A DNA stretch of 64,000 bases from NCBI RefSeq assembly GCF_030317205.1, contig NZ_JASZYB010000001.1, forward strand, positions 1,612,001-1,676,000, given 5' to 3'. Under the pieces are notes generated by a model. It worked only from the letters and a program-made list of their open reading frames with translations. It ran no database searches and was not told the origin of the DNA. The translations under genes and the position numbers were made by a program. The DNA is from Variovorax sp. J2L1-78. GTDB taxonomy: Bacteria; Pseudomonadota; Gammaproteobacteria; Burkholderiales; Burkholderiaceae_C. This document shows, piece by piece, positions 6,889 through 17,655 of this stretch (position 1 is its first letter; each line of letters opens with the position of its first letter).

Positions 6889-8352
6889 TCAACGCGGCAA
6901 CCCCGCATCGGTCAGCCGCACCACCCGTCCGGAGCGCACGCCGAGCGCCCGGCCATCCTGCCAGGCAGGCCGTCCATTGACGATGACGGTGTCGATGCCC
7001 TCGGCCCGCAGCGTGGGCGCATCCCAGGTCGCGCGGTCGGCAACGCGGTCGGCATCGAAGACGGTGATGTCGGCGAAGGCGCCTTCGCGCAGCACGCCAC
7101 GGCCCGGTAGCCGGAAGTGGCGCGCGGTGAGCCCGGTCATCTTGTGCACCGCCTCTTCGAGCGAGAACAGGCCGACGTCGCGGCAGTAGTGGCCCAGCAC
7201 CCGCGGGAAGGTGCCCCACAGGCGCGGATGCGGCGCGGTGTCGTGCGGCATGCCATCGGAGCCGATCATGGTCTGCGGAAAGGCCAGCACGCGCCGCACG
7301 TCGGCCTCGTCCATCAGGAAATAGATGGCGCCGGCGGGCAGCAGCCGGTCGACCGCGTCCTCCATCGACACGCCCAGGCGCTGCGCGATCACGTCGAGGT
7401 CCATGCCGGCGAACTCGGGGTGCGGCTGCGACGTGGTGACGATGATGCGGCTCGACACGGGGATGCGGTCCTTGCGCAGGATGGTGGAGCCCGCGCAGTA
7501 CGGGTAGCAGTCGAGCGCGATCGACTGGTGCGCCATGGCCGCGCGCACGTGCGCCAGCGTATGGACCGAGCGGCCGTGGTTGCGCGGGCCGATCAGCTTG
7601 TGGTGCGAGACCACCACCGGCGCGTCGACGGCACGGCCGATCGCGAAAGCCTCGTCGAGCGCGGCGAAGACGTGGTCGCCCTCGTCGCGGATGTGGCTCG
7701 CATACACGCCGCCGTAGGCGCCGATCACCTCGGCCACCTGCGCCATCTCGTCGGTGGTAGCCGGCATCGCCGTGGGGTAGGCGGCGCCGGTCGACAGGCC
7801 GATGGCGCCGCTGGCCATCGCCTCGTCGAGCAATGCGCGCATGTGCGCGATCTCCTCGGGCGTGGCGGCGCAGTCGAGCTGCGGCATGGTGGCTGCACGC
7901 AGCGTGGTGTGGCCGACGAGGCAGGCCGCGTTGACCGCCGCAGGTGCGGCTTCCAGACGCGCCAGGTAGGCCGCGAAGGTGGCGTCGCCGAACAGCGCCG
8001 GATCGTGACCGAGCAGGTTCAGCGGCGGCGGCACGGTGGCACCTGCCGGTGCGCCCCAAGGCGCGAGGCTGATGCCGCAGTTGCCGGTGACGACCGTCGT
8101 CACGCCCTGGCTCAGCTTGGCCGGCATGTCCGGGTCGAGCAGCAGGTAACGGTCGTCGTGGGTGTGCGAGTCGATGAAGCCCGGTGCGACGATGCGGCCG
8201 GCGGCATCGATCTCGGCGGCGCCGCGCTGGCCCGACAGATCGCCGATCGCAGCCACGCGCGCACCGCGGATGCCGACGTCGGCGGAGCGCCGCGCGGCGC
8301 CCGTGCCGTCGATCAGCGTGCCATGGCGCAGCAGCAGGTCGAAGTCGGCCAT
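6889..8352 (-). CDS. N-acyl-D-amino-acid deacylase (D-aminoacylase)
   Basis: A 487-residue amidohydrolase that releases free D-amino acids from N-acyl-D-amino acids. The metal-site residues fall at exactly the positions I recall for the Alcaligenes D-aminoacylase: His63 and His65 (DSHTHDD), Cys92 (GNCGIS), His220, His250 and Asp366 (IGSDGMPHD). The cysteine ligand separates this group from ordinary dihydroorotase-like enzymes. It follows the Bug binding protein by 10 bases, in an operon with an N-carbamoyl-D-amino-acid hydrolase, which supports D-stereospecificity. The exact acyl group and side chain are not predictable. Confidence 0.9.
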   Translation of the reverse strand: MADFDLLLRHGTLIDGTGAARRSADVGIRGARVAAIGDLSGQRGAAEIDAAGRIVAPGFIDSHTHDDRYLLLDPDMPAKLSQGVTTVVTGNCGISLAPWGAPAGATVPPPLNLLGHDPALFGDATFAAYLARLEAAPAAVNAACLVGHTTLRAATMPQLDCAATPEEIAHMRALLDEAMASGAIGLSTGAAYPTAMPATTDEMAQVAEVIGAYGGVYASHIRDEGDHVFAALDEAFAIGRAVDAPVVVSHHKLIGPRNHGRSVHTLAHVRAAMAHQSIALDCYPYCAGSTILRKDRIPVSSRIIVTTSQPHPEFAGMDLDVIAQRLGVSMEDAVDRLLPAGAIYFLMDEADVRRVLAFPQTMIGSDGMPHDTAPHPRLWGTFPRVLGHYCRDVGLFSLEEAVHKMTGLTARHFRLPGRGVLREGAFADITVFDADRVADRATWDAPTLRAEGIDTVIVNGRPAWQDGRALGVRSGRVVRLTDAGLPR

Positions 8353-8362
8353 GTGCGAACGC

Positions 8363-9364
8363 TCAATCGATCTTGGCGCCCGAGCGCTTGATCACGTCGG
8401 CCCACAGCGGGCGTTCCTTCTTCGCGAGGTCGAACAGGTCCTGGCGCGGGCCGGTGTGGATCTCGTAGGCCTGCGTGGCCAGCTGCTGCTTCACCGCCGG
8501 CGAATTCAGTGCCTTGTTGAAGGCGGCGTTGAGCGTGTCGAGGATCTTCGGGTCGACGCCGGCCGCGGCCACGTAGCCGGTCCAGGCCACGGCCTGGTAG
8601 TTCTTCAGGCCGGTCTCGGCGATGGTGGGCAGCTCGGGCAGGCGGCTGTCGCGCGTGGCGCCGGTCACGGCCAGCGCGGTGATCTTGCCGCTCTTGAGGT
8701 GCGGCGCGATGGACGTGATGTTCTCGAACACCAGGTCGACCTCGCCGCGCATCAGCGCCAGGTCAGCTTCCAGGCCCCCCTTGTACGGGATGTGCACGAT
8801 CGACACGCCCGCCATCGTCTTGAACATCTCCGCGCTCAGGTGGCCGGTGGTGCCGTTGCCGCCCGAGGCCACGGTCAGCTTGCCCGGCGCCTTCTTGGCC
8901 ATGGCGATGAGGCCGGCCACGTCCTTCACGCCGAGGTCGCTGCGCACGGCCAGCACGTTCTGCACCGAGCCGGTGAGCGCCACGGGCGCGAGCTGCGTGT
9001 CGGCGTCGTAGGGCAGCTTTTGGTAGAGCGACTGGTTGATCGCCAGCGTCGCCACGTTGGCGTAGGCGATGGTGTAGCCATCCGCCGGGGCGGCGATGGT
9101 GGCTTGCGTGCCGATGATGCCGGACGCGCCGACGCGGTTCATCACCACCACCGACTGGCCGAGCTCGCGGCCCACCGCATCGGCCAGCAGGCGCGAGACG
9201 ATGTCGGGCGTGGTGCCGGCGTTGAAAGGCACGATCAGCGTGATCGGCTTGTCGGGGTACGCGGCCTGCGCATGGCCGTACAGGGCCAGCGCGACGAGGG
9301 GTGCGGCCAGCGCCTGGAGCAGCCAGCGGCGAGAGGATGGAAAAGAAACGTTGAAGCGCGACAT
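8363..9364 (-). CDS. Bug/TctC-family tripartite tricarboxylate transporter substrate-binding protein
   Basis: A 333-residue periplasmic solute-binding protein with an N-terminal signal peptide (twin Arg followed by a hydrophobic stretch, cleavage near AQA). Bug signatures are YPDKPITLIVPF at the mature N-terminus and HIPYKGG in the middle. No TctA/TctB membrane genes lie nearby, as is usual for Bug proteins in Comamonadaceae and Bordetella. It sits between the dehydratase and the deacylase, so it may bind an acyl- or carbamoyl-amino acid; that is an inference from context. Confidence 0.92.
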   Translation of the reverse strand: MSRFNVSFPSSRRWLLQALAAPLVALALYGHAQAAYPDKPITLIVPFNAGTTPDIVSRLLADAVGRELGQSVVVMNRVGASGIIGTQATIAAPADGYTIAYANVATLAINQSLYQKLPYDADTQLAPVALTGSVQNVLAVRSDLGVKDVAGLIAMAKKAPGKLTVASGGNGTTGHLSAEMFKTMAGVSIVHIPYKGGLEADLALMRGEVDLVFENITSIAPHLKSGKITALAVTGATRDSRLPELPTIAETGLKNYQAVAWTGYVAAAGVDPKILDTLNAAFNKALNSPAVKQQLATQAYEIHTGPRQDLFDLAKKERPLWADVIKRSGAKID

Positions 9365-9477
9365 GGACAGGACTTTCTGAAGATCGAATGGAAGGGCTTG
9401 CGGTCTCCTGGGCCTCGCTGCACCGGAACGGCGGCGTCGGCCTCATTGCTATGAAAACGGTGCGTGGGATGCGGCGG

Positions 9478-10521
9478 CTAGCGCTCGGCCCGCACCATCG
9501 CGGCCTGCAGCACCGGCAGGTCGACGTTGCCGCCCGACAGCACGATGACGGCGCCCTGCCCGTCGAGCGACAGGTGGCCGGCCAGCAGCGCGGCGAGCGC
9601 GACGCTGCCGCCGGGCTCGACGACCAGGTGCAGTTCTTCCAGCGCGAAGCGCATCGCATGCGCGACCTCGTCGTCGGTCACCGACACGGCCTGGCTCAGC
9701 AGCGGCTGGTTGATGGCGAAGGGCAGCTCGGCGGGCGTCGCGGCCTGCAGGGCGTCGCACAGGGTGCGGGCGCCCGGGGCGTTGGTCTCGCGTCGGCCGC
9801 TCTGCAGCGAGCGCACGGTGTCGTCGAAGCTCGCCGGCTCGACCGCCACGCGCCGCGCCTGCGGGCTCAGCGCATCGAGCACCAGGCAGCAGCCCGCCAT
9901 CAGGCCGCCACCGCCGCACGGCGCGGCGAACAGGCCGAGCTTCTCGCGCTCGCCGGGCGGCAGGTCTTCGAGCGCCTCGAGCGCCACCGTGCCTTGTGCC
10001 GCGAGCACATCAGGGTGGTCGCCCGGCGGGACCAGTGTGCCGCCGGTCTCGGCCAGCAAGCGCATGCCGATGTCCTCGCGGCTTTCCTTCTCGCGGTCGT
10101 AGTGCACGACCTGCGCGCCCTGCGCGATGGCGCGCGCCACCTTGTTCTTCGGCGCATCGACCGGCATCACGATGGTGGCCGACACGCCCAGTTGCCGCGC
10201 CGCCCAGGCGATGGCCTGGCCGTGGTTGCCGGTCGAATAGGCGACGACGCCGCGCTGGCGCTCGGCCGGGGTGAGCGCCAGCAAGGCATTGAAGGCACCA
10301 CGGGCCTTGAACGAGCCGGTGACCTGCAGGCTCTCGGGCTTGAGCCAGACGGCGCCGCCCGCCAGCGCATCGAGCCGCGGCGAACGCAGCAGCTGCGTGC
10401 GGCGCACGTGCGGGGCGATGGCCTGCGCGGCGCGCTGCACGTCGTCGAAGCGCGGCACGCGCATCGTGCCGAGCATCGCGTGTTCGATGTGGGCGGGAAG
10501 CGAGGTGGCATTGATCGTCAT
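9478..10521 (-). CDS. PLP-dependent threonine/serine dehydratase-like enzyme
   Basis: A 347-residue fold-type II PLP enzyme. The Schiff-base lysine is Lys72 in GSFKARGA, the phosphate-binding loop is CGGGGL, and STGNHGQA is the usual substrate-carboxylate loop. There is no C-terminal ACT domain, so it is the catabolic, unregulated type (threonine/serine dehydratase, serine racemase or hydroxyaspartate dehydratase). The ATG at 10521 follows a clear AAGGAG. Placed between two enzymes releasing D-amino acids, it could deaminate or racemise the product; the substrate is uncertain. Confidence 0.85.
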   Translation of the reverse strand: MTINATSLPAHIEHAMLGTMRVPRFDDVQRAAQAIAPHVRRTQLLRSPRLDALAGGAVWLKPESLQVTGSFKARGAFNALLALTPAERQRGVVAYSTGNHGQAIAWAARQLGVSATIVMPVDAPKNKVARAIAQGAQVVHYDREKESREDIGMRLLAETGGTLVPPGDHPDVLAAQGTVALEALEDLPPGEREKLGLFAAPCGGGGLMAGCCLVLDALSPQARRVAVEPASFDDTVRSLQSGRRETNAPGARTLCDALQAATPAELPFAINQPLLSQAVSVTDDEVAHAMRFALEELHLVVEPGGSVALAALLAGHLSLDGQGAVIVLSGGNVDLPVLQAAMVRAER

Positions 10522-10532
10522 CGCGCGCTCCT

Positions 10533-11519
10533 TCACGCCGGGTTCCACACGGGCGGCTCGGTGCTGCCGGTCTGGGTCGTGAGGTGGGTGTAGGCCTCGA
10601 GGCGGCGATGCTGGGCGAAGTTGAAGATGGTGGTGCGGCCCAACTGGCACATGTCGAGGTGGCAGTCAGCCACCAGCAGCTCGTCGTCCCAGGTGGAGGC
10701 CATGGCCATCACTTCGCCCTGCGGGTTGACGATGACCGAGTGGCCCATCAGTTCGAAGCCGTCTTCGTTGCCGGCCTTGGCCACGCCCACGCCGAAGGTG
10801 GCGTTCTGGTAGCAGCCGGCCTGGATGGACAGCTGCGAATGGAACTGGCGCTGGTACGGCGCCTCGAAGCCGCGGTTCTCCTGGTTCACGGCCGGCGTGT
10901 TGTAGCCCAGCATGACCAGCTCGACCTGCTGCAGGCCCAGCTCGCGCCAGGCTTCGGGCCAGCGGCGGTCGTTGCAGATCAGCATGCCGAGGTTCACGCC
11001 ATCGACCGGGCCGACCGGTGCGCGCACGACCGGAAAACCGAGGTTGCCCACCTCGAAATAGCGCTTCTCCAGGTGCTGCACCTTGCGGATGGTCGAGAAC
11101 TCCTTGTGCCCTGGCAGGTGGACCTTGCGGTACTTGAGCACGATCTCGCCCGACGGCGCGATCACCACCGAGGTGTTGAAGCGGCGCTTGCGCACCACGC
11201 CGGTCTCATCGGCCTCGTGCGCGATCTCGGCATAGCCCAGGTAGCAGGTGATGCCGTAGCGGCGGATGGCGTCGAAGATCGGCTGCGTGGCGGGCGACGG
11301 CAACGCCTCTTCGTACCAGGCGTCCGCTTCGTCCAGGTTCTCGACGTACCAGCGCGGGAAGAAGGTGGTGAGCGCCAGTTCGGGAAACACCACGACGTTC
11401 GCGCCGCGTTGATGCGCGCGCTCGAGCAGGCGCACCATGCGGGCGACGACGGCATCGCGGCCCTCGGCCCTCTGGATGGGCCCGAGCTGGGCGGCGGCGA
11501 CGGTGATGAGGCGGGTCAT
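10533..11519 (-). CDS. N-carbamoyl-D-amino-acid hydrolase
   Basis: A 328-residue nitrilase-superfamily amidohydrolase that converts N-carbamoyl-D-amino acids to D-amino acid, CO2 and ammonia. The Glu-Lys-Cys triad is Glu47 (VFPELALTTFFP), Lys132 (RKVHLPGHKE) and Cys182 (ICNDRRWPEA). These motifs, with HLEKRYFE and IFNFAQHR, match the well-studied D-carbamoylases closely. I chose ATG 11519; earlier in-frame starts would add 88 arginine-rich residues with no family match. It is the first gene of the operon and 12 bases precede the dehydratase. No hydantoinase is present in the window. Confidence 0.9.
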   Translation of the reverse strand: MTRLITVAAAQLGPIQRAEGRDAVVARMVRLLERAHQRGANVVVFPELALTTFFPRWYVENLDEADAWYEEALPSPATQPIFDAIRRYGITCYLGYAEIAHEADETGVVRKRRFNTSVVIAPSGEIVLKYRKVHLPGHKEFSTIRKVQHLEKRYFEVGNLGFPVVRAPVGPVDGVNLGMLICNDRRWPEAWRELGLQQVELVMLGYNTPAVNQENRGFEAPYQRQFHSQLSIQAGCYQNATFGVGVAKAGNEDGFELMGHSVIVNPQGEVMAMASTWDDELLVADCHLDMCQLGRTTIFNFAQHRRLEAYTHLTTQTGSTEPPVWNPA

Positions 11520-12221
11520 GAGGGCGGGGCGTGGAGTGGGTCTGGGCCGGATGATCCGGCCTGTAGCAGCCACGGCCAATCGCGCTGGAACCACCCTGGC
11601 AGGCCGTGCGGATACCCGCAGGATGCGCACAAGTGGTTGATTCACAAAGAAAACATTACCGTCACCGACCGACCGACGCACCCTAATCAATAACCGCGCG
11701 TTATGGCTGCGGGACAAAAGGTGATGGGCATGTGCGCGCCGATGTCGACCGGTCACAACGACAGGTGCCGGTACTCCCAACACCGTGAAAGTCTTGCAGC
11801 TTGGTTTGCATTCGCGCCTCAGCCGCTTGGAGAGCCGGGGTCAGTGGTCACACACCCGGGCGTCCGTCAGAGTCTCCGGCTACCCCCCCGCTGCTTACGA
11901 TGAAAGAGGCGGAGCGCAGTAAAAGGCAGACAGAATGCGGCCGGCGGCCACCACACGAGGACAAAGGGCGGGCGACTCAGACTACCTTCCGCGTGACCAA
12001 GCAGCATTCTTTGGGTACACAGCAGCAGGCAGCCACTCTCAGCGTCGCCGGAGCGAACGTGCCACGCAACCGACAGCAAGCCGAGCCATTCGACACAGTG
12101 ACTAAGCAGACCAGCGTCAACCCAGGAACTTGACCCTGCTTCGGCTGACATGGTTTCCAAGCGCAACAGGGGCTCGTCCGCTTTAGACTCCAAAACTTAC
12201 ACGCACGTAGTCCGGGACCTC
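11520..12221. other. Long intergenic region upstream of the D-amino-acid operon
   Basis: About 700 bases without a convincing gene. The left part (to about 11705) should hold the leader and promoter of the minus-strand operon starting at 11519 and contains a LysR-type box (11690-11704). A GACC tetranucleotide is tandemly repeated near 11666-11677. From about 11705 rightwards the composition falls toward that of the orphan gene at 12222. I found no tRNA, transposase or clear direct repeats that would mark an insertion boundary. A 110-codon open frame here lacks any protein-like pattern. Confidence 0.6.
11690..11704. promoter_or_regulatory. LysR-type operator candidate (T-N11-A dyad)
   Basis: The sequence ATAAC-CGCGC-GTTAT is a perfect five-base inverted repeat containing T-N11-A, the classical LysR recognition pattern. 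It lies 171 bases upstream of the first gene of the D-amino-acid operon. The only LysR genes in the window are at 13646-14641 and 55900-56823, and the former is the nearest. Such short dyads occur by chance, so this is suggestive only. Confidence 0.35.
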
Positions 12222-13364
12222 ATGAGCTTGATCGTTGGCCGCGTCGTTGGCGAGCAAGTATTTCTGTTCGCCGATACCGAGATTACCTATTCGAATGTTG
12301 CACGTCGACCCGTTACCAGTGGCTGCCTAAAGCTTTACCGGATTACTCCAAGCGTCGCCCTTGGCTTCGCGGGCGATGTCGCCGATTTCGCGGCTTTCCT
12401 TCCGATGGTCAGAGGACTCACCGACGCCGAAGAAATACTCGCCAGAGCGGAGGCAGCCTTTGAGGCCGGCTCTCGATTCGATGTTCTAGTGGCCCAAGCG
12501 GGAGCAGGAGAAATTCAACTCCTCAAGAACGGGAAACGCGAAGTTAGTGGTGCTGGTTTTGTGGGAGATGCACCAGCATATGGGCATTTTCAGCAGTCCT
12601 TCCATGCACACTCCAACACTGGTGCGATGCTGGAGCAACGCGTATCGCTCACCATGCGTCGCTTGCCGGAGCCTCTGAACGGGCGAGATGAGTACTTGCG
12701 CATGTTCGACAGTTTGGTTGACGTGATCGAATCGAGGGCGTTCCCAACAGTCGGTGGTCTTGCAACGTCCCTGTGCACGGACCGCGGGGTGTTCACGTAC
12801 ATGAACTATGCGGCCGCCGTCTCAGATCGGTTGAGCCTAGAACGTTTTACAGAAGTACCTCAACGAATCGACTTTGGCACCGCGGAAGGCGGTGGATACG
12901 CGCTTGAAGTCTGGCCAGCGGCCAGTGATCCCAGCCTACTAGCGTTCTACATCCCTCCGGGTGGCTTCGGCGGCGTATTCGAGGAGGACGATTCCGGCAT
13001 GAGGTGGGCGCGTCTCGTTGTTGCACCGACGCCTGCCCATTGGTCACTCCAGACCAAGTCATTGGGATATGACATTCAGTCCAGCTTTCTATCCGCCCAC
13101 CATTGCGGCCCATTGGCCGAGGATCTGCTTGGACAGAATAAGTTCGACGACGCCGTATTCGTCTATGAGCTTACTCGTGACACAAACGAACTGGATGAAC
13201 GTCCGCCGCTGCGCGACCGCTTTTCCGCCGGATACGCCCATGCCCTTATCGGTGCAGGTCGCCGACAGAACGCGATCGAGATGCTTCGGGGGCTGCAGCG
13301 GACTGGCCGCCTGGGGCAGAGTTGCTCTGCGCTCCTTCAGGAGTTATCAAGAGGCAACGACTGA
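12222..13364 (+). CDS. Orphan proteasome-like Ntn hydrolase (predicted)
   Basis: With the start at ATG 12222 the protein has 380 residues and begins Met-Ser. Removing Met leaves Ser1, and Asp17 (FLFADTEIT) and Lys36 then line up with proteasome beta-subunit Thr1, Asp17 and Lys33. The segment KLYRITPSVALGFAG aligns without gaps to the Lys33-Gly47 stretch of beta subunits. An ATG at 12150 would add 24 residues and bury the nucleophile. The C-terminal 150 residues look like alpha-helical hairpins and match nothing I know. Codon use and G+C (often near half) are unlike the neighbours. No partner gene (HslU-like ATPase, Anbu operon) is adjacent. The fold assignment is a pattern-based inference; activity and target are unknown. 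Confidence 0.65.
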   Translation: MSLIVGRVVGEQVFLFADTEITYSNVARRPVTSGCLKLYRITPSVALGFAGDVADFAAFLPMVRGLTDAEEILARAEAAFEAGSRFDVLVAQAGAGEIQLLKNGKREVSGAGFVGDAPAYGHFQQSFHAHSNTGAMLEQRVSLTMRRLPEPLNGRDEYLRMFDSLVDVIESRAFPTVGGLATSLCTDRGVFTYMNYAAAVSDRLSLERFTEVPQRIDFGTAEGGGYALEVWPAASDPSLLAFYIPPGGFGGVFEEDDSGMRWARLVVAPTPAHWSLQTKSLGYDIQSSFLSAHHCGPLAEDLLGQNKFDDAVFVYELTRDTNELDERPPLRDRFSAGYAHALIGAGRRQNAIEMLRGLQRTGRLGQSCSALLQELSRGND

Positions 13365-13645
13365 TCCCCCGAGCCCCACGTCCATGATCCGCGTTCCGGC
13401 AGCCTCGGCAGCGAACGGCGATGAAGGCCTCAACAATGGAATACGGCTGCTGTGACTTAGCCAGTTCACATGAGGATCATGATTGCCTCGCTGACCTCAT
13501 CGCGTTTCCTGTGGGCGCCAATTTTTGGCCCAAAGCCGGTTCGTATTTGCGTAAACGGCCGTTCGCCGCATGGTTGCCAACGGCTCGTGACCGAGACACG
13601 CGCCCCGCAAATCCCAGGCAGTGACGGCAGCGCCGACGTCTCAGC

Positions 13646-14641
13646 TCAGGAAGACAACGCACGCGCGGGCGCATGCTCGCCCGGGTGCTCGGTCAGCGTC
13701 GGGGCGATCGCGGTGTCGCGGCCCTCTTCCTTGAGCACGCGCTTGACCACGGCCAGGAATTCCTTCGCCATGGCCGACAGCGGGCTGACGTTGGTGTGGA
13801 TCAGGTAGATGCGGTGCGACAGCGGCGGCGACAGCGGCTTAAGCACCACGCCGTCGTGCGCCGAGCGCCGCGCGCCGAAGGCCTCGATCAGCGCCACGCC
13901 GACGCCTTCTCGCACCAGGCCCATCGCCTCGGGCGTGGAGCGGATCTCGATGTCGGCGCGCAGCGGCAGGCCCGCCGCCGCGAAGAAATCGGCCGACAGC
14001 CGGCCGAAGGGCGTCTCGCGCCCGTAGCTGATGAAGGTCTGGCCCACCAGGTCGGCGGCGCCGACGGCGTCGGCCTGCGCCAGCGGGTGCGACTCGGGCA
14101 CCGCGCATTCGATGAAGCTGTGGCCGATCGCGCGCGCCGCCGCGTTGGCGCTCGGTGGCGGCGGCATCGACGAGATCGCCAGGTCGGCATGCCCCAGCAG
14201 CACGTGCGGCAGCAGTGAATCAAAGGGCAACGGCCGGTACTTGATGCGCACGTCGGGGAAGCGGGCCCGGAAGCGCCGGATGGCCACGGGAATCAGCCAC
14301 TCGCTGTAACTCGGGCTCGACACCAGGGACAGTTCGCCGTGGGCGCCACCGGCCAGGTCGGCGGCCAGCGCATTGAAGCGGCGCACGCCCTCCAGGATGC
14401 TTTCCACCTCCGAGAACAGCCGACGCGCCTCGGGCGTGGGCTGCAGGCGGCCCCGCACACGCTCGAACATCAGCATGCGCAGCCGGCTTTCGACCGTCGC
14501 CAGCACGCGGCTGACGGCAGGCTGCGACACCGACAGCATGCGCGCCGCCCCGCTGAGCGAGCCGGCGATCATGATGGCGTGGAAGACTTCGATCTGCCGC
14601 AGGTTCAGCGGCACGGGCGGGGTCGGGAGCTTGGCAGGCAT
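13646..14641 (-). CDS. LysR-family transcriptional regulator
   Basis: A 331-residue LysR regulator. The winged HTH covers about residues 13-72 (LRQIEVFHAIMIAGSLSGAA then SVSQPAVSRVL), followed by a periplasmic-binding-fold effector domain. The HTH style resembles the OccR/NocR-like group that often controls amino-acid catabolism. ATG 14641 was chosen; the upstream frame adds 13 residues of no family match. It lies 66 bases downstream of the glycerol-binding-protein stop on the same strand and converges with the orphan Ntn-hydrolase gene. The target may be the D-amino-acid operon; that is inferred only from proximity. Confidence 0.9.
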   Translation of the reverse strand: MPAKLPTPPVPLNLRQIEVFHAIMIAGSLSGAARMLSVSQPAVSRVLATVESRLRMLMFERVRGRLQPTPEARRLFSEVESILEGVRRFNALAADLAGGAHGELSLVSSPSYSEWLIPVAIRRFRARFPDVRIKYRPLPFDSLLPHVLLGHADLAISSMPPPPSANAAARAIGHSFIECAVPESHPLAQADAVGAADLVGQTFISYGRETPFGRLSADFFAAAGLPLRADIEIRSTPEAMGLVREGVGVALIEAFGARRSAHDGVVLKPLSPPLSHRIYLIHTNVSPLSAMAKEFLAVVKRVLKEEGRDTAIAPTLTEHPGEHAPARALSS

Positions 14642-14707
14642 GGAGCGAGAGACGGACTGCCCTCCCCATGCAAGGACCACGCCACCGTGGCCGCCCGTGG
14701 CTGGCGA

Positions 14708-16438
<1,731 letters not shown>

Positions 16439-16846: not shown

Positions 16847-17655
16847 TCAGACGCGGCCCATCGCAAAGCCTTTTGCGATGTAGTGGCGGACGAACCAGAT
16901 CACGATCGCGCCGGGCACGATGGTCAGCACGCCGGCCGCGGCCAGCGTGGCCCAGTCCATGCCCGAGGCGCTCACGGTGCGCGTCATCGTCGCCACGATC
17001 GGCTTCGCATTCACGCTGGTGAGCGTGCGGGCCAGCAGCAGCTCGACCCAGCTGAACATGAAGCAGAAGAACGCCGCCACGCCGACGCCCGCCTTGATGA
17101 GTGGCAGGAAGATCGTGAGGAAGAAGCGCGGGAACGAGTAGCCGTCGATGTAGGCCGTCTCGTCGATCTCGCGCGGGATGCCGCTCATGAAGCCTTCGAG
17201 GATCCACACCGCCAGCGGCACGTTGAACAGCAGGTGCGCCAGCGCCACGCCCAGGTGCGTGTCCATCAGCCCCACCGTGCTGTAGAGCTGGAAGAAAGGC
17301 AGCAGGAAGACCGCCGGCGGCGTCATGCGGTTGGTCAGCAGCCAGAAGAACACGTGCTTGTCGCCGAGGAAGGAGTAGCGCGAGAAGGCATAGGCCGCCG
17401 GCAGGGCCACGGTGAGCGAGATCACCGTGTTGATGCCCACGTAGATCAGGCTGTTGATGTAGCCCGAGTACCACGACTCGTCGGTGAAGATGCGCGCGTA
17501 GTTGGCCCAGGTGAGCTGCTGCGGAAAGAACGAGAAGCTCGAGAGGATCTCCTCGTTCGTCTTGAAGCTCATGTTGATCATCCAGTAGATGGGCAACAGC
17601 GCGAAGACGATGTACAGCACCAGGAAGATGCTGCGCTTGTGAAAACGTCGGTCGT

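What the first reader, a model, noticed from the sequence alone, without database searches (positions are those of the whole stretch)
12222..13364. Orphan proteasome-like Ntn hydrolase with predicted Ser1 nucleophile
With start 12222 the processed N-terminus is Ser1, followed by Asp17, with Lys36 in the place of proteasome Lys33. The stretch from Lys36 to Gly50 aligns to beta-subunit Lys33-Gly47 without gaps. Known self-compartmentalising relatives (HslV, Anbu, BPH, 20S) use Thr or Ser nucleophiles. This one carries about 150 extra C-terminal residues and no ATPase partner. It could be a new class of proteasome-fold hydrolase or a non-proteolytic amidase.
Basis: partly seen in the sequence, partly recalled or inferred. 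Interest (0 to 1): 0.66.

Follow-up and report, generated by a model that had tools for sequence, protein, structure and literature searches.

The report
Stray proteasome-like enzyme with added tail
A bacterium has picked up a lone gene for a distant cousin of the proteasome, the cell's protein shredder, with the same kind of cutting residues and an unusual extra tail; what it cuts is unknown, so it is a sensible candidate for a bench test rather than a breakthrough.

Summary
The frame at 12222-13364 is a real, foreign-looking gene for a remote proteasome relative. Four relatives (three intact, one cut short; 23-39% identical) from genomes of the same phylum begin at the same Met-Ser/Thr-Leu; in three the frame leaves almost no room upstream, so Ser1 by Met removal is well supported. 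Nucleophile (Ser or Thr), Asp17, Thr21 and Lys36 are kept in 5 of 5. The pooled family profile matches HslV from residue 1 (hhalign probability 90; reversed and 30 shuffled controls score under half as much), though its parts alone match weakly. A low-confidence AlphaFold model still finds only proteasome entries among the 50 listed PDB hits. Corrections: the oxyanion glycine is Gly47, not Gly50, and varies in the family (G/A/S). The ~180 extra residues are a conserved family-specific stretch (about 200-265) and a weakly TPR-like tail (285-380) seen only here. The gene lies alone in 1.9 kb that one same-genus genome lacks. Most likely it is a narrow-specificity hydrolase or transferase carried as cargo. 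Activity, assembly, substrate and subfamily (22 are in print) are untested. Verdict: new variant of a known kind.

The parts
12222..13364 (+). Coding sequence of the proteasome-like protein, 380 aa plus stop
   Evidence: relatives; pairwise matches
12225..12227 (+). Ser1, predicted nucleophile after Met removal (Ser in 2, Thr in 3 of 5 members)
12273..12275 (+). Asp17, conserved in 5 of 5 members
12285..12287 (+). Thr21, conserved in 5 of 5 members (substrate-backbone contact in proteasomes, recalled)
12330..12332 (+). Lys36, equivalent of Lys33, conserved in 5 of 5 members
12363..12365 (+). Gly47 of GFAG, equivalent of the oxyanion-hole glycine; G/A/S in the family
12558..12581 (+). FVGDAPAY motif (W/F-I/V-G-D-x-x-A-Y/F), where HslV has IGSG
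12744..12758 (+). PTVGG motif, kept as P/A-T/S-x-G-G in 4 of 4 members that reach it
12822..13019 (+). Family-specific extension shared with the three intact relatives (I-x-F ... A-x-Y)
   Evidence: no Pfam match for residues 201-290
13074..13361 (+). C-terminal helical, weakly TPR-like tail, not aligned in the three intact relatives
   Evidence: TPR_19 E=0.032 on residues 280-380, below cut-off; helices with block pLDDT 54-80 over residues 331-380
12150..12221 (+). Possible 24-codon upstream extension, judged not translated
11732..13665 (.). Low-GC segment absent from same-genus genome G1530, which has 95 bp here

Best explanation
The gene encodes a remote member of the proteasome-like branch of the Ntn hydrolases. 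Met aminopeptidase removes Met, freeing Ser1; Ser1 attacks an amide, assisted by its own amino group with Lys36 and Asp17, and the Gly47 backbone holds the oxyanion. With no ATPase partner beside it, a family-specific extension after the core and a helical tail, it most likely acts on one or a few specific protein or peptide substrates, perhaps recruited by the tail, as protease, amidase or transferase. It is an accessory gene, probably acquired horizontally. Shown by sequence: gene, start, conserved active-site residues, relatedness to HslV, foreign composition. Inferred: fold of the second half, catalysis, specificity, role of the tail.
For: Profile of 5 family members against 26 HslV sequences: probability 89.9, score 48.9, aligned from residue 1 with nucleophile, Asp17 and Lys33 positions in register; reversed control 18.4, best of 30 shuffles 24.0. 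Window protein alone against three intact relatives: probability 97.6 over 240 columns, score 89.7 against 19.0 reversed and 20.5 for the best of 30 shuffles. PF00227 is its best Pfam match, E=9.6e-4. The 3 PDB sequences matched by the family profile at E<=10 are all HslV, E=0.05-0.07. 50 of 50 listed PDB structure matches are proteasome entries, probability 0.96-1.00 (463 had E<=10, 50 shown). Parts of residues 1-118 align with proteasomes at Z up to 7.8. The same model finds nothing above probability 0.11 in the 50 listed viral models. Nucleophile is Ser or Thr in 5 of 5; Asp17, Thr21, Lys36 in 5 of 5. GC3 0.596 against 0.86-0.95 in five neighbouring frames.
Against: PF00227 score 19.3 is below its cut-off of 22.4. 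AlphaFold confidence is low (mean pLDDT 40, pTM 0.34; core alone 44 and 0.47), residues 1-38 included, and no structure match reaches E<=0.001. The VIA-align note calls Z of this size middling. The window protein alone reaches only 24% probability with HslV (residues 1-56) and the three intact relatives only 11%. The oxyanion glycine is Ala or Ser in 4 of 4 relatives, and the GSG serine of HslV is Asp in 4 of 4 members that reach it. Nothing shows catalysis.
Confidence: 0.72

Rival explanations
1. It is a proteasome-like protein that is catalytically dead or nearly so, used as a binding or regulatory module, like proteasome alpha subunits.
For: Oxyanion glycine not conserved in the family and the GSG serine replaced by Asp in 4 of 4. 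One relative is a truncated fragment.
Against: Ser/Thr is the only variation at the nucleophile in 5 of 5, and Asp17, Thr21 and Lys36 do not vary in these 5; an idle site would be expected to drift. The start lies exactly one residue before the nucleophile.
Confidence: 0.17
2. It is an island-borne defence or toxin-like effector: the tail senses or binds something and the Ntn site then cuts a host or phage protein. Not exclusive of the best explanation; it concerns the role.
For: Sparse, patchy distribution. The gene lies in foreign-looking DNA. L007 is the second frame after a tRNA-Ser in what looks like an island, after a HEPN-like gene (E=6.7e-6, just below cut-off) and before a gene with an RNKLTH motif seen by eye, with a serine recombinase and a Panacea-domain gene further on.
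Against: No PADLOC match for the window protein (E<=10) or the three intact relatives (E<=0.1). The window gene and L012 stand alone among what look by eye like housekeeping genes; the HEPN link rests on one locus. Three literature searches pairing Ntn or proteasome-like terms with phage defence or HEPN found nothing.
Confidence: 0.22
3. It is a self-compartmentalising ring protease like HslV or BPH working on unfolded proteins.
For: Closest sequence matches are HslV and beta subunits.
Against: About 180 residues beyond the core and no ATPase gene adjacent; the genome already has HslVU and a second PF00227 protein.
Confidence: 0.08
4. The resemblance is chance and the protein has another fold.
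For: Sub-threshold Pfam match, low model confidence, weak match to HslV without pooling the family.
Against: Agreement of profile comparison with controls, conserved catalytic residues and structure search.
Confidence: 0.03

Closest known systems
HslV (ATP-dependent protease subunit)
   Same: Nucleophile at residue 1, Asp17, Lys33 and the GFAG loop align in register
   Different: About twice as long; GSG serine replaced by Asp; no HslU beside it; no NCBIfam HslV model listed for it at E<=10
20S proteasome beta subunit (PF00227, TIGR03634)
   Same: Best Pfam and NCBIfam matches; predicted N-terminal part overlays on proteasome subunits
   Different: 19.3 bits against a cut-off of 22.4 (Pfam) and 16.6 against 224 (NCBIfam); the PF00227 search of the genome lists only HslV and L002
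Proteasome-like families of Fuchs et al. 2021 (RPC, DPH, GPH, DAH and others)
   Same: Several are rare, divergent and mainly proteobacterial; no AAA+ partner reported; RPC and DAH carry C-terminal domains without known match (PMC8665760, parts 1-5 of 6 read)
   Different: Their sequences could not be fetched, so identity with any of the 22 is untested; the main text has no occurrence of TPR or tetratricopeptide
Connectase
   Same: Proteasome-like, no unfoldase; shows that this fold can be a specific ligase (PMC8665760)
   Different: Archaeal and without helices H1-H2 (PMC8665760), which the window model has (H53-63, H69-81)
Anbu
   Same: Proteasome-like with a C-terminal extension
   Different: Anbu's extension is a coiled-coil helix (PMC8665760); no direct comparison was made. 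L002 in the same genome looks Anbu-like (label recalled)

Membership tests
Proteasome-like family in the wide sense of Fuchs et al. 2021 (evolutionary relatedness plus active-site residues) | Significant relatedness to a known member | tested here: met
   Family profile against HslV: probability 89.9, score 48.9, controls at most 24.0. Weaker when the window protein (24%) or the three intact relatives (11%) are used alone
Proteasome-like family in the wide sense of Fuchs et al. 2021 (evolutionary relatedness plus active-site residues) | Thr/Ser at residue 1 of the mature chain, Asp17, Lys33 | tested here: met
   5 of 5 members; start supported by relatives. Met removal itself is inferred
Proteasome-like family in the wide sense of Fuchs et al. 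2021 (evolutionary relatedness plus active-site residues) | Oxyanion-hole glycine (Gly47) | tested here: inconclusive
   Present in the window protein; Ala or Ser in 4 of 4 relatives
Proteasome-like family in the wide sense of Fuchs et al. 2021 (evolutionary relatedness plus active-site residues) | Four-layer Ntn fold over the whole core | tested here: inconclusive
   Parts of residues 1-118 overlay on proteasomes but mean pLDDT is 40-44 and the second half is not modelled with confidence
Pfam PF00227 as curated | Score above the gathering cut-off of 22.4 | tested here: not met
   19.3 bits
HslV | Match to the HslV equivalog models | tested here: not met
   Not listed at E<=10 (filters drop most matches above about 0.1); the genome's HslV scores 302 bits
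HslV | HslU ATPase gene adjacent | tested here: not met
   Neighbours are nitrilase-like and LysR-like genes (by eye)
20S proteasome beta subunit | Score above the TIGR03634 cut-off of 224 | tested here: not met
   16.6 bits
RPC, DPH, GPH, DAH, PMI and the other 2021 families | Clusters with the named representative sequences | not testable with these tools
   Representatives are given by accession only; no tool here fetches proteins by accession
Anbu | Clusters with Anbu; split-ring assembly | not tested
   No Anbu profile was built; assembly needs experiment
Self-compartmentalising protease | Ring assembly | not testable with these tools
   Needs purification and microscopy

The most novel reading that the evidence does not exclude
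A further proteasome-like subfamily, not among the 22 published, in which a Ser1/Thr1 Ntn core is joined to a conserved post-core module and, in the window protein, a TPR-like sensor tail. It would work without any unfoldase as a mobile, single-gene, target-specific protease or protein ligase, possibly in anti-phage conflict.
Probability: 0.2. Interest if true: 0.68.

Novelty: new variant of a known kind. Interest (0 to 1): 0.42.

Why it matters
Most of the recently described proteasome-like proteins of bacteria have no known function (PMC8665760). A lone, probably mobile copy that keeps the catalytic residues but has no unfoldase beside it and an added tail is a tractable case for asking what such enzymes do outside bulk protein degradation; connectase, from the same family, turned out to be a useful ligase.

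Tried and rejected
Searches for relatives that found none: genome contigs with the protein alone (76 pattern matches, none confirmed); viral contigs five times; plasmids; phages; PHROGs (nothing better than E=0.2). PADLOC: no match except two weak ones for the HEPN neighbour of L007. A paper search for Panacea, antitoxin and proteasome gave one unrelated paper (listing only).

Rows dropped before counting relatives: L005 (two stops inside, residues 56-126), L006 (residues 16-94, E=0.005, but it lies in the C-terminal part of a protein that looks by eye like a secretion protein with a PDZ-like end), L008 (residues 104-159), L009 (residues 231-289) and L013 (E=0.007, within a 1,132-residue frame). 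L005, L008, L009 and L013 were not read further, so a remote relative among them is not excluded. L016 is a proteasome-like protein of a different kind (PF00227 E=3.1e-7) and was not counted. L010 repeats L007; L014, L083 and L015 repeat L004, judged by contig, contig length and sequence.

HslV profile: 26 of the 30 loci L053-L082 passed my text pattern for the HslV start; 4 were dropped. I set Met before Thr1 in each, and wrote Met for the TTG/GTG starts of relatives.

Rejected: start at 12150 (relatives); gapless Lys36-Gly50 pairing; transposon insertion (no terminal repeats or target duplication found; no transposase-like frame noticed by eye). A match to the proteasome Asp166/Ser169 pair (recalled) was considered; spacing differs and I call it unresolved. 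VIA-align lists only proteasome and HslV entries in its 50 rows; other Ntn families not being listed says nothing about them.

Full report
What is there. The frame 12222-13364 on the + strand codes for 380 residues beginning Met-Ser-Leu-Ile-Val-Gly-Arg. Its 420-codon open frame is longer than the longest found in each of 500 base shuffles of the surrounding 1,934-bp segment (maximum 381). Neighbours by eye are a nitrilase-like gene and a dehydratase-like gene on the left and a LysR-like regulator, then a carbohydrate-type ABC transporter, on the right; DNA similar to the right-hand region on plasmids of Sphaerotilus and Comamonas (81-85% identical) is annotated as ABC transporter and glycerol kinase or dehydrogenase genes. 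No ATPase gene adjoins it.

Relatives. The whole-genome searches gave: 1 of 250 genomes of the family, the own genome only; 4 of 369 of the class, one of them, besides the own genome, a true relative (L004); 4 of 398 of the phylum, besides the own genome one true (L007); 4 of 149 in the family of L007's genome, of which L007 itself, L011 and L012 are true; 1 of 1 in the order of L004's genome, L004 again; 2 of 240 in the class of L007's genome, L007 again and L016, a different proteasome-like protein; 1 of 200 of the order, own; 2 of 203 of the class with the profile, own and L004 again. Genomes overlap between calls, and groups were sampled, not exhausted. The second genome-contig scan confirmed 1 of 4 pattern matches, a contig of a gammaproteobacterial MAG of the same length as L004's contig. 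So four relatives are in hand: three intact (329-357 aa; L007 and L011 are 68% identical to each other) and one truncated (90 aa). BLASTP with the window protein as query gives E=8e-15 (L004), 7e-13 (L012), 3e-7 (L011) and 0.004 (L007; 5e-9 with L007 as query), at 23-39% identity (search space is these five sequences only).

Start and nucleophile. L004, L007 and L011 have only 8, 14 and 5 open codons upstream of Met-Ser/Thr-Leu, and each of the four relatives has a Shine-Dalgarno-like sequence right before it. The start therefore lies one residue before the Ser/Thr, as in enzymes whose nucleophile is exposed by Met removal. Ser at position 2 is a good Met-aminopeptidase substrate (established knowledge).

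Proteasome relatedness. PF00227 is the best Pfam match, but below cut-off (E=9.6e-4, 19.3 against 22.4 bits). The family profile run over PDB sequences matches three at E<=10, all HslV. Profile against profile with HslV gives probability 89.9 and score 48.9 over residues 1-121, against 18.4 for the reversed profile and at most 24.0 in 30 shuffles. This strength needs the pooled family: the window protein alone gives 24% (residues 1-56) and the three intact relatives alone 11%. AlphaFold with a two-row alignment is poor (mean pLDDT 40, pTM 0.34), but blocks of ten over residues 41-110 average 58-85, with strand, helix-helix and strand order as in a beta subunit; residues 1-38 are below 50. The 50 PDB structures listed for that model are all proteasome entries (best E=0.005, none at or below 0.001; 463 at E<=10). 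VIA-align places parts of residues 1-118 on proteasomes at Z up to 7.8, a size its note calls middling. For the core-only model, 45 of the 50 listed are proteasome entries, including the first 20. As a contrast, the viral library gives nothing above probability 0.11 in the 50 listed.

Active site. Nucleophile Ser (window, L004) or Thr (L007, L011, L012), and Asp17, Thr18, Thr21 and Lys36 in 5 of 5. The HslV IGSG stretch is I/V-G-D in the four members that reach it. The core catalytic residues are thus kept while the second shell has changed, which fits altered substrate preference better than loss of function, though loss is not excluded.

Beyond the core. Residues about 200-265 are shared with the three intact relatives, and residues 201-290 match no Pfam family. 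Residues 285-380 are not aligned in them; the best hits of fragment 280-380 are BTAD (E=0.029) and TPR_19 (E=0.032), both below cut-off, and AlphaFold gives helices over 330-376 with moderate confidence. I call it TPR-like, weakly.

Origin. GC at third codon positions is 0.596 against 0.86-0.95 in five neighbouring frames. GC in 500-base windows falls to 0.56-0.59 within the gene, against 0.66-0.75 over 8000-11749 and 0.69-0.72 over 13500-14749; it also dips to 0.58 near 17,500, so low GC alone is not unique. Of 20 other genomes of the genus examined, one (G1530) has both flanking genes next to each other; there 95 bp stand in place of window 11732-13665. A second (G1526) has the left gene at 88% identity, without the right flank listed on that contig; three of the 21 genomes gave no match and the rest partial or weaker ones, with at most 14 candidates scored per genome. 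So this is one clean comparison. No repeats or target duplication mark the ends. Gain in this lineage is likelier than loss in G1530, given the foreign composition.

Context of relatives. L007 is the second frame after a tRNA-Ser, after a HEPN-like gene and before a gene with an RNKLTH motif noticed by eye, with a serine recombinase and a Panacea-domain gene within 9 kb. The truncated L015 lies on a contig whose neighbours include a gene resembling a type IV secretion coupling protein by eye. L012 lies alone between a transcription-regulator-like gene and a lytic-transglycosylase-like gene (by eye). The listing for L011's surroundings was cut in the output and was seen in part; three of its neighbours had no Pfam match above cut-off. 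This fits mobile cargo; defence is a guess resting mainly on one locus.

Known or new. Fuchs, Alva and Lupas 2021 (PMC8665760; parts 1-5 of 6 read, plus a term search) described 22 proteasome-like families, several rare and proteobacterial, some with unexplained C-terminal domains, with no AAA+ partner or function identified. They expected more to be found. Their sequences could not be compared here. Literature searches for proteasome-like or Ntn enzymes together with conflict systems, phage defence, HEPN or TPR returned no paper; the library is open-access only. Hence new variant of a known kind, of moderate interest.

Noticed in passing
L016:1070-2262: A 254-aa proteasome-like protein (PF00227 E=3.1e-7) of another kind, whose start overlaps the end of a gene with a sub-threshold Panacea antitoxin match (E=1.5e-4); the overlap suggests an operon.
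   Followed up: partly
L049:7456-18099: Apparent island beside tRNA-Ser in the genome of L007 with a HEPN-like gene, the proteasome-like gene, an RNKLTH-motif gene, a serine recombinase and a Panacea-domain gene.
   Followed up: partly
L002:1198-2040: Second PF00227 protein of the window's genome (280 aa, Anbu-like by recall), after a mutS-like gene and before an alpha/beta-hydrolase-like gene by eye.
   Followed up: partly
L049:7961-8971: HEPN-like protein (match just below cut-off) whose C-terminal part matches the lysozyme-inhibitor family LprI above cut-off (26.4 against 22 bits), an odd pairing.
   Followed up: no
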